From the NCBI GenBank assembly GCA_020847915.1, contig JADLBE010000002.1, forward strand, positions 1-36,558: a stretch of 36,558 nucleotides of DNA, written 5' to 3'. The stretch is from Saprospiraceae bacterium (GTDB taxonomy: Bacteria; Bacteroidota; Bacteroidia; Chitinophagales; Saprospiraceae). This document shows, piece by piece, positions 6,941 to 8,828 of the stretch. Each line of letters opens with the position of its first letter. The stretch's first letter is position 1. Below the pieces are notes generated by a model. The model was not told the DNA's origin. It saw only the letters and a list, made by a program, of their open reading frames with translations, and did no database searches. Position numbers and translations under genes: made by a program.

Positions 6941-6950
6941 CTAAGGAGTG

Positions 6951-7052
6951 GCGAATGAGGAATGCTGAATGCGGAATTTTCCCGACGAAAGTGAGGAAAT
7001 TTTGCTGAAGCAAGTGAATTCCGCATTCAACATTTCACATTCTACATTCGAA
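6951..7052. repeat. Period-7 GAATGNN array with inverted counterpart (GCATTCA/ACATTTC/ACATTCT) around a central hairpin
   Basis: GAATGAGGAATGCTGAATGCGGAATT ... AATTCCGCATTCAACATTTCACATTCTACATTC. Confidence 0.75.
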
Positions 7053-7141: not shown

Positions 7142-7234
7142 TTTTCGAATGCGGAAAGAAGAATACGGAATTTGGTCCCACATTTTGTTGGGATGACAAT
7201 CCGGCATTCAACATTCCGCATTCTGCATTCCTTT
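7142..7234. repeat. Period-7 GAATGCG/GCATTCC inverted arrays around a TCCCACATTTTGTTGGGA hairpin
   Basis: Direct reading. Confidence 0.7.
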
Positions 7235-7357: not shown

Positions 7358-7429
<72 letters not shown>

Positions 7430-7441
7430 CGAATAGCGAAT

Positions 7442-7519
7442 AGCGTTGTAGCTCAGTGGCAGAGCGGTCCGGCACTTGTGTCGGAAAGGTCGTGGGTTCA
7501 AAACCCATCAACGGTTCCA
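7442..7519 (+). tRNA. Aberrant tRNA-like element with encoded CCA; abnormal anticodon arm, identity undetermined
   Basis: D arm GCTC-AGTGGCA-GAGC, T arm GTGGG-TTCAAAA-CCCAT, acceptor AGCGTTG/CAACGGT (one G-G mismatch), T+CCA; anticodon region GTCCG-GCACTTGTGT-CGGAA is 3 nt longer than standard. Confidence 0.6.
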
Positions 7520-7557
7520 TATCATTTCACATAAATTGAATAAACATTTTCAAACCA

Positions 7558-8754
7558 ATGGCAAAAGAGACATTTGTTCGCAACAAGCCGCACGTAAATA
7601 TTGGCACGATCGGTCACGTAGACCACGGCAAAACAACGTTGACGGCTGCCATTACCTACGTACTTTCGCAAAAGGGTCTGGCTAAAAAGACGGACTACGC
7701 TGCCATTGATGCTGCTCCTGAAGAAAAAGAACGCGGTATCACCATCAATACGGCGCACGTCGAATACGAAACGTTGAAGCGTCACTACGCACACGTTGAC
7801 TGTCCGGGTCACGCTGACTACGTTAAAAACATGATCACAGGTGCCGCACAAATGGACGGCGCCATAGTTGTTTGCGCTGCAACTGACGGCCCAATGCCAC
7901 AGACGCGCGAGCACATCCTCCTCGCCCGCCAGGTAGGCGTTCCGCGTATCGTTGTTTTCATGAACAAAGTTGACCTGGTAGACGACCCGGAAATGCTTGA
8001 GCTCGTGGACATGGAACTTCGCGAACTGCTTAGCTCCTATGGCTTCGACGGCGACACCGCTTCCATCATCCAGGGTTCGGCTCTGAAAGCCCTCGAAGGC
8101 GATCCGACCTACTCGCAGCGCATCATGGACCTCATGGACGCTTGTGACAACGACATTCCGGACCCCGTTCGCGAAGTTGACAAGCCCTTCCTGATGCCGG
8201 TTGAAGACGTGTTCACCATCACAGGTCGCGGTACCGTAGCTACGGGCCGTATCGAACGTGGTGTTATCAACGTAGGCGATCCCGTTGAAATCATCGGTAT
8301 GATGAAAGAAAACGAAAAGCCTATGACTTCGACCATCACAGGTGTGGAAATGTTCCGCAAACTGCTCGATCGCGGTGAAGCTGGCGACAACGCCGGTCTC
8401 CTCCTCCGCGGTATTGAAAAAGAACAGATTAAGCGTGGTATGGTTATCTGCAAACCCGGCAGCGTTAAACCGCACAAGAGCTTCAAGTGCTCGGTTTACG
8501 TTCTGTCGAAAGAAGAAGGTGGCCGTCACACGCCATTCTTCAACGGATACCGCCCGCAGTTCTACTTCCGTACCACTGACGTAACTGGTGACGTTAAACT
8601 CCCGGTAAACGTTGAAATGGTAATGCCCGGTGACAACATCGAGCTGGAAGTAAAACTCCTGAACACCATCGCCCTCGAAAAAGGTCTCCGCTTCGCTATC
8701 CGCGAAGGTGGCCGTACAGTTGGCGCCGGACAGGTAACCGAGATCATCGACTAA
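7558..8754 (+). CDS. tuf: Translation elongation factor EF-Tu
   Basis: [33 protein letters not shown] ... [23 protein letters not shown]. Confidence 0.99.
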
Positions 8755-8763
8755 AATACAGTC

Positions 8764-8828
8764 ATCAGTCAACAGTCGACAGTCAACAGTTTTTTAACTG
8801 AGGACTGTCGACTGGCGACTGTCGACTT
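8764..8828. repeat. Inverted period-7 arrays (AGTCAAC/AGTCGAC) forming a hairpin between tuf and tRNA-Trp
   Basis: AGTCAACAGTCGACAGTCAACAGTTTTTTAACTGAGGACTGTCGACTGGCGACTGTCGACT. Confidence 0.8.

What the first reader, a model, noticed from the sequence alone, without database searches (positions are those of the whole stretch)
7442..7557. tRNA-like element with abnormal anticodon arm in the tuf leader
Between tRNA-Thr(GGT) and tuf (ATG 7558) lies a cloverleaf-like sequence with good D and T arms and an encoded CCA. It resembles the adjacent tRNA-Thr(GGT) in both flanks but has a 3-nt longer anticodon region (GTCCG-GCACTTGTGT-CGGAA). That region can extend into a long stem (GTCCGGCAC/GTGTCGGAA) leaving no normal 7-nt loop. 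The order Thr-Tyr-Gly-Thr-tuf matches E. coli thrU-tyrU-glyT-thrT-tufB, where I recall a proposed tRNA-like tufB leader. Possible roles: a tRNA mimic for EF-Tu autoregulation, an RNase P/Z processing signal, a decayed duplicate tRNA, or a tRNA with an expanded anticodon loop.
Basis: partly seen in the sequence, partly recalled or inferred. Interest (0 to 1): 0.8.

Follow-up and report, generated by a model that had tools for sequence, protein, structure and literature searches.

The report
Hairpin-armed tRNA-Thr copy before tuf
Just before the gene for elongation factor Tu lies a non-decoding copy of the neighbouring threonine tRNA whose anticodon arm has become a closed hairpin; it belongs to a previously unreported (as far as I could search) class of such copies found beside many tRNA genes across Bacteroidota, often together with a small GIY-YIG nuclease gene.

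Summary
7442-7519 is a tRNA-like sequence with sound D and T arms, an encoded CCA and a 20-nt anticodon arm (normal 17) that closes into a 7-bp hairpin with a CTTG loop, so it cannot decode. The EF-Tu regulation idea is not supported: none of 29 other genus genomes with a readable tRNA-Thr-to-tuf spacer has it. One further genus member (G051) has at least two tandem copies directly after the same tRNA-Thr, with the same-length arm as a perfect 9-bp hairpin (TCCCGACACTGGTGTCGGGA). From there a wider class appeared: copies of Val, Ala, Lys, Arg, Pro, Asn and Thr tRNAs beside the intact gene, the anticodon arm replaced by a palindrome (TCCCG...CGGGA). They occur in 26 of 395 class genomes (0 for the reversed pattern) and inner stem positions covary. 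The copies often bracket a small GIY-YIG nuclease gene; 25 of the 30 best GIY-YIG loci lie within 200 bp downstream of a tRNA. The window's own genome has at least three more. Best reading: a solo, inactive tRNA-Thr copy from a GIY-YIG-linked tRNA duplication process (nuclease role inferred), before tuf only because tRNA-Thr is.

The parts
7442..7519 (+). tRNA-Thr-derived copy with hairpin anticodon arm (tRNA-like, non-decoding)
   Evidence: ARAGORN tRNA-???; Rfam tRNA 38.7 bits; closest own tRNA is Thr(GGT); relative in G051
7467..7486 (+). 20-nt anticodon arm GTCCGGCACTTGTGTCGGAA; 7-bp hairpin 7468-7474 / 7479-7485, loop CTTG 7475-7478
   Evidence: same-length arm in G051 with a double compensatory change C-G to T-A
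7451..7465 (+). D arm GCTC AGTGGCA GAGC, intact
7492..7508 (+). T arm GTGGG TTCAAAA CCCAT, intact
7442..7448 (+). 5' acceptor strand AGCGTTG; pairs with 7509-7515 except G:G at 2:71
   Evidence: 5' acceptor ends are also mismatched in the copies of G051 and L296
7516..7519 (+). discriminator T and encoded CCA
7358..7430 (+). intact tRNA-Thr(GGT), the presumed parent
7430..7443 (+). direct repeat CGAATAG CGAATAG between tRNA-Thr and the copy; its second unit runs two bases into the copy's 5' acceptor strand
   Evidence: read directly
7558..8754 (+). tuf (EF-Tu), downstream neighbour, not part of the element
   Evidence: ORF of 398 aa; tblastn relatives

Best explanation
The element is a duplicated copy of tRNA-Thr(GGT) that has lost decoding ability because its anticodon arm is replaced by a palindrome. 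It is one member of a Bacteroidota-wide class of hairpin-armed tRNA copies. Shown: such copies, whole or half tRNAs, lie upstream or downstream of the intact tRNA of the same kind, often as tandem arrays; they frequently flank a small GIY-YIG nuclease gene lying just after the intact tRNA; the palindrome sits at the anticodon arm and its stem is kept by covariation. Inferred: the GIY-YIG nuclease cuts tRNA genes (as the phage enzyme SegB does) and the repair produces tandem duplications of the tRNA segment; the extra copies carry the palindrome, which removes the anticodon so they are harmless, and which may be the nuclease's or a recombination protein's site or may destroy the cut site. In the window the nuclease gene is absent and one solo copy remains. 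It precedes tuf because tRNA-Thr(GGT) does; its transcription as part of the tRNA-tuf operon is incidental.
For: Same-place relative: G051 has tRNA-Thr followed by at least two tandem copies with arm TCCCGACACTGGTGTCGGGA. Other copies in the window's own genome: C8:107-136 (Val copy after the C-terminal codons of a GIY-YIG-like gene), C182 (Val copy beside intact tRNA-Val), C440 (Ala copy beside tRNA-Ala). Class scan: ATCCCGAN{2,25}TCGGGANGGTC in 26 of 395 genomes, 23 genera, reversed-pattern control 0; phylum scan 9 of 248, control 0, some outside the class; genus scan 8 of 42 genomes. Covariation without selecting on inner pairs: pair 6 paired in 29 of 30 arms and pair 7 in 26 of 30, 0 of 5000 shuffles as high. 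GIY-YIG link: 25 of the 30 best class GIY-YIG loci, plus the genus locus L308, have a tRNA within 200 bp upstream, and 19 of these 31 have a TCC-hairpin within 150 bp after the ORF; Pfam GIY-YIG E 1e-11 to 3e-16. Tandem GIY-YIG plus tRNA-part arrays: 10 units after tRNA-fMet in G165, 3 in G337. SegB precedent: PMC13096335.
Against: The window's own stem is off-consensus (TCCGG.../...TCGGA, one G:T pair and an outer G:A mismatch), so alone it would not match the class pattern; membership rests on the G051 relative. No GIY-YIG gene is in the window or beside this tRNA. The Val copy in C8 follows only a 30-codon remnant that Pfam does not recognise on its own. Nuclease cutting of tRNA genes, and any role of the palindrome, are untested. 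G000 and G051 are not sister species on the tuf tree, so shared descent at this locus needs losses, transfer or repeated origin.
Confidence: 0.66

Rival explanations
1. Small palindromic elements (comparable to Rickettsia palindromic elements or REPs) insert into expendable tRNA copies; the GIY-YIG gene is a separate tRNA-linked parasite or merely the carrier.
For: TCCCGA...TCGGGA palindromes are over-represented in most genomes tested (G412 45 vs 7 in the reversed control, G051 56 vs 4, G158 54 vs 5, G000 21 vs 3; but G437 4 vs 9), many outside tRNAs. Other palindromes sit in the D loop (L224, L241) or T loop (L227, L229) of copies, and just after the anticodon in fMet copies.
Against: In nearly all copies the palindrome is at the anticodon arm, replacing it rather than adding to it, and the copies are duplicated together with flanks and the GIY-YIG gene.
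Confidence: 0.2
2. A plain decayed tandem duplicate of tRNA-Thr with a chance hairpin.
For: Mismatched acceptor position, absent in most relatives, lower tRNA score.
Against: Same-length, covarying hairpin in G051 and the class-wide recurrence with a conserved stem; D and T arms are intact.
Confidence: 0.08
3. A tRNA-like tuf leader that binds EF-Tu and regulates tuf, or a processing signal that frees tuf mRNA.
For: Position directly upstream of tuf; D and T arms and CCA kept, so RNase P or EF-Tu contact is conceivable.
Against: Absent before tuf in 29 other readable genus genomes and 55 named tuf loci; the same class sits at tRNA-Val, Ala, Lys, Arg and Pro loci without tuf; 5' acceptor mismatch.
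Confidence: 0.04
4. A functional tRNA with an expanded anticodon loop (e.g. a frameshift suppressor reading a 4-base codon).
For: ARAGORN proposes a 4-base anticodon cttg.
Against: The loop closes to 4 nt or fewer; in G051 it closes to 2 nt; loop sequences vary freely across the class while stems are kept.
Confidence: 0.02

Closest known systems
SegB-type free-standing GIY-YIG homing endonucleases of T-even phages (PMC13096335)
   Same: Small GIY-YIG nuclease gene beside tRNA genes; SegB cuts within tRNA genes and drives tandem amplification of a tRNA segment together with its own gene.
   Different: Here the genes are in Bacteroidota chromosomes; no phage record matched the protein; PHROGs similarity is weak; the extra tRNA copies carry a palindrome in place of the anticodon arm, which the SegB paper sections read do not describe.
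Rickettsia palindromic elements / REP-like small palindromes (from general knowledge)
   Same: Short palindromes with a conserved outer stem and variable inside, dispersed and also inside genes.
   Different: Here placed at one site of tRNA copies, linked to a GIY-YIG gene and to duplication of the tRNA.
tRNA-targeting integrative elements (duplicated 3' tRNA halves at att sites; general knowledge)
   Same: A tRNA 3' part is duplicated beyond an inserted gene while an intact tRNA is kept.
   Different: No integrase seen in the unit; 5' halves and whole tRNAs are duplicated too; the junction is a palindrome in the anticodon arm.
Proposed tRNA-like tufB leader of E. coli
   Same: Position between tRNA-Thr and tuf.
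   Different: Not conserved at tuf; the class occurs at other tRNAs. No paper on it was found in the held library.

Membership tests
Functional elongator tRNA (Rfam RF00005) | cloverleaf with D and T arms, score above the gathering cut-off | tested here: met
   38.7 bits vs 29
Functional elongator tRNA (Rfam RF00005) | 7-nt anticodon loop on a 5-bp stem with T33 and an anticodon | tested here: not met
   20-nt arm closing into a hairpin with a loop of 4 nt or fewer
Functional elongator tRNA (Rfam RF00005) | transcribed, matured and aminoacylated | not testable with these tools
   no RNA data
tRNA-like tuf leader for EF-Tu control | conserved upstream of tuf in relatives | tested here: not met
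   0 of 29 other genus genomes with a readable spacer; 0 of 9 same-order genomes; 55 named tuf loci, of which two have only an ordinary tRNA in the spacer
tRNA-like tuf leader for EF-Tu control | binds EF-Tu | not testable with these tools
   none
Hairpin-armed tRNA copies (class defined in this report) | beside an intact tRNA of the same kind | tested here: met
   11 nt after tRNA-Thr(GGT), its closest own tRNA
Hairpin-armed tRNA copies (class defined in this report) | anticodon arm replaced by a palindrome | tested here: met
   7-bp hairpin
Hairpin-armed tRNA copies (class defined in this report) | outer stem TCCCG/CGGGA | tested here: not met
   window has TCCGG.../...TCGGA; the co-located relative in G051 meets it
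Hairpin-armed tRNA copies (class defined in this report) | GIY-YIG gene in the same cluster (frequent, not universal) | tested here: not met
   none in the window; a GIY-YIG-like C-terminal remnant precedes another copy in the same genome
SegB-type GIY-YIG homing endonuclease (for the linked gene) | GIY-YIG domain and tRNA adjacency | tested here: met
   Pfam E 1e-11 to 3e-16; 25 of the 30 best class loci within 200 bp downstream of a tRNA
SegB-type GIY-YIG homing endonuclease (for the linked gene) | cuts tRNA genes and amplifies the segment | not testable with these tools
   tandem arrays are consistent with it
YrlA (Rfam RF02553) | score above the gathering cut-off | tested here: not met
   21.2 bits vs 69, partial overlap only

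The most novel reading that the evidence does not exclude
Bacteroidota chromosomes carry a distinct class of selfish or domesticated genetic unit that lives on tRNA genes: a GIY-YIG nuclease gene that duplicates the tRNA around itself while marking every extra copy with a covarying palindrome in the anticodon arm, so that the host keeps exactly one working tRNA; the window shows a nuclease-less remnant at tRNA-Thr/tuf.
Probability: 0.42. Interest if true: 0.8.

Novelty: new variant of a known kind. Interest (0 to 1): 0.63.

Why it matters
If right, a whole class of 'tRNA-???' and spurious tRNA-Lys(TTT) annotations in Bacteroidota has one explanation; tRNA gene counts for these genomes would need correction; and it gives a chromosomal counterpart to the recently described phage SegB-driven tRNA amplification, with a cis signal (the palindrome) that can be tested directly.

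Tried and rejected
EF-Tu leader mimic: rejected on distribution. Expanded-loop or frameshift tRNA: rejected because stems are kept and loops vary. Sequencing error: a whole 20-nt arm differs and a relative has the same-length arm. YrlA-like RNA: sub-threshold. Phage-borne class: the viral pattern scan returned mostly ordinary phage tRNAs with a TCCCG stem and 7-nt loop, with perhaps two real copies (L312, L320), and the GIY-YIG protein had no match in 50,697 phage records. A first covariation count had selected arms on six outer pairs and was replaced by the unselected one. Fold energy of the element is unremarkable (z -1.66). The odd 309-nt tRNA-Thr-to-tuf spacer of G026 (L027/L336) has a TCCCG...CGGGAGGTC motif next to a D-arm-like stretch, but I could not show it is a copy of the same kind. 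Own-genome GIY-YIG hits above threshold at C287 and C302 have no ARAGORN tRNA in their fetched flanks. Ten paper searches found no description of this class; the library is open-access only.

Full report
WHAT IS THERE. Between tRNA-Thr(GGT) (7358-7430) and tuf (ATG 7558) lies a 78-nt tRNA-like sequence, 7442-7519. Acceptor, D and T arms are present and Rfam scores it above the tRNA cut-off (38.7 vs 29 bits), but the anticodon arm is 20 nt and closes into TCCGGCA-CTTG-TGTCGGA. There is no anticodon loop. One acceptor pair (2:71) is G:G. Among 30 tRNA genes of the same genome its best match is tRNA-Thr(GGT).

RELATIVES AT THE SAME PLACE. The genus (the set nearest G000) includes G002, which by contig coordinates appears to be the record titled uncultured Saprospiraceae bacterium. 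In 29 other genus genomes the tRNA-Thr-to-tuf spacer can be read and none holds a tRNA-like element; 9 same-order genomes and 55 named tuf loci from the genome collection also lack it (two of the latter have an ordinary tRNA there). One genome, G051, does have it: its tRNA-Thr is followed by a complete copy and then the start of a second, where the contig ends; its tuf lies on another contig that starts 43 bases before the ATG, so the join to tuf is inferred. The arm has the same length as in the window and is a perfect 9-bp hairpin, TCCCGACACTGGTGTCGGGA. Compared with the window, one pair changed on both sides (C-G to T-A) and one on one side (A-T to G-T). On a tuf tree the two genomes are not sisters.

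THE WIDER CLASS. A class-wide pattern for long anticodon arms brought in copies at tRNA-Arg, Val and Pro in other families, all with the arm replaced by a palindrome TCCCGA...TCGGGA (TTCCGA in one genome). A second pattern (ATCCCGAN{2,25}TCGGGANGGTC) matched 26 of 395 genomes in 23 genera, and none for the reversed pattern. A few of those matches have no tRNA in the fetched flanks. At phylum level 9 of 248 genomes match a stricter form, some outside the class, control 0. Within the genus 8 of 42 genomes have copies with the consensus stem, at Ala, Lys, Val and Thr tRNAs. In the window's own genome there are at least three more: a Val copy following GIY-YIG-like codons at the start of contig C8, a Val copy beside intact tRNA-Val at the start of C182, and an Ala copy beside tRNA-Ala(GGC) in C440. 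The C8 and C182 copies have the same palindrome at contig ends and could be two ends of one collapsed array. ARAGORN reports several such copies as tRNA-Lys(TTT).

ANATOMY OF THE CLASS. Three forms recur: 5' tRNA part plus palindrome upstream of the intact tRNA, sometimes in tandem (L223, 87-bp period); palindrome plus 3' tRNA half downstream, with the parent's terminator copied too (L221, L245, L296); and a GIY-YIG gene between the intact tRNA and a copy, where the D arm of the copy can supply the gene's stop codon (L216, L229, L308). Whole-tRNA copies with a mismatched 5' acceptor end occur in G051 and L296, as in the window. tRNA-fMet has its own version: the palindrome (TCCGCC...GGCGGA or TCCGTT...AACGGA) directly after the anticodon, with tandem GIY-YIG arrays of 10 (G165) and 3 units (G337).

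STEM CONSERVATION. Taking arms from loci fetched by GIY-YIG protein similarity or by a pattern that fixes only the outer five pairs, pair 6 is formed in 29 of 30 and pair 7 in 26 of 30 arms, with several pair types; none of 5000 shuffles reaches either number. Pairs 8 and 9 are not above chance. So the outer TCCCG/CGGGA is conserved as sequence, the next two pairs as structure, and the rest is free loop. Relatedness of the sequences can exceed such shuffles without structure, so this is strong but not a formal probability.

GIY-YIG LINK. An 83-aa GIY-YIG protein from one cluster has relatives in 90 of 395 class genomes. Of the 30 best loci, 25 have a tRNA within 200 bp upstream on the same strand, as does the genus locus L308; 19 of these 31 have a TCC-hairpin within 150 bp after the ORF. 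With roughly 45 tRNA genes in a 4-Mb genome I estimate a chance adjacency near 1 percent. The query came from a tRNA-linked cluster, so the best hits are biased towards such clusters. Pfam confirms the domain; similarity to phage homing endonuclease families is weak.

HOW IT MOST LIKELY WORKS. Shown here: duplication of tRNA segments, palindrome in place of the anticodon arm, stem conservation, adjacency to GIY-YIG genes, tandem arrays. Inferred: the nuclease cuts tRNA genes and the repair yields tandem segments. The nearest tested precedent is phage SegB, which cuts inside tRNA genes and drives amplification of the tRNA segment with its own gene (PMC13096335). The palindrome would make the extra copies non-decoding and could be a binding site or a destroyed cut site. 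The main rival is an independent palindromic element that inserts into expendable copies; genome-wide excess of the same palindromes and palindromes in D or T loops of some copies speak for it.

THE WINDOW ELEMENT. It meets adjacency to its parent tRNA and the palindromic arm, but not the exact outer stem, and has no GIY-YIG gene beside it; its place in the class rests mainly on the G051 relative and on the other copies in its own genome. Its nearness to tuf follows from the tRNA-Thr-tuf gene order.

VERDICT. Observation confirmed; EF-Tu mimic not supported; a solo member of a class that I did not find described in the open-access library searched.

Noticed in passing
window 6946-7049, 7147-7223, 8760-8827: The spacers between the tRNAs and after tuf hold long imperfect inverted repeats built from short repeated words (AATGCGGAAT; CAGTCGACAG). 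Related species have different repeat words in the corresponding spacers, e.g. GAGTGATTGA in G051 and GTGATGATT in G008.
   Followed up: partly
L333 (G165:C9:905400-911400): Ten tandem units of 457 bp after tRNA-fMet, each a GIY-YIG gene plus a 3' tRNA part.
   Followed up: partly
L296 1480-1805; L214 2251-2331; L232 1577-1651: Hairpin-armed copies are reported by ARAGORN as tRNA-Lys(TTT); tRNA counts of such genomes are probably inflated.
   Followed up: partly
L335 (G337:C10:152400-154600): An intact tRNA-fMet is flanked upstream by two palindrome-marked 5' copies and downstream by three GIY-YIG plus marked 3' copies: a symmetric array around one working tRNA.
   Followed up: partly
L027 / L336 (G026), tRNA-Thr to tuf spacer of 309 nt: Contains TCCCGGTTAAACGGGAGGTC followed by a D-arm-like stretch; possibly a degraded copy of the same kind at the tuf locus.
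   Followed up: partly
G000 contigs C70 and C107 (L282, L283): The palindromes TCCCGACTAAATCGGGA and TCCCGATTGAATCGGGA sit inside similar longer inverted repeats with no tRNA called in the fetched flanks, so the palindrome is not confined to tRNA copies.
   Followed up: no
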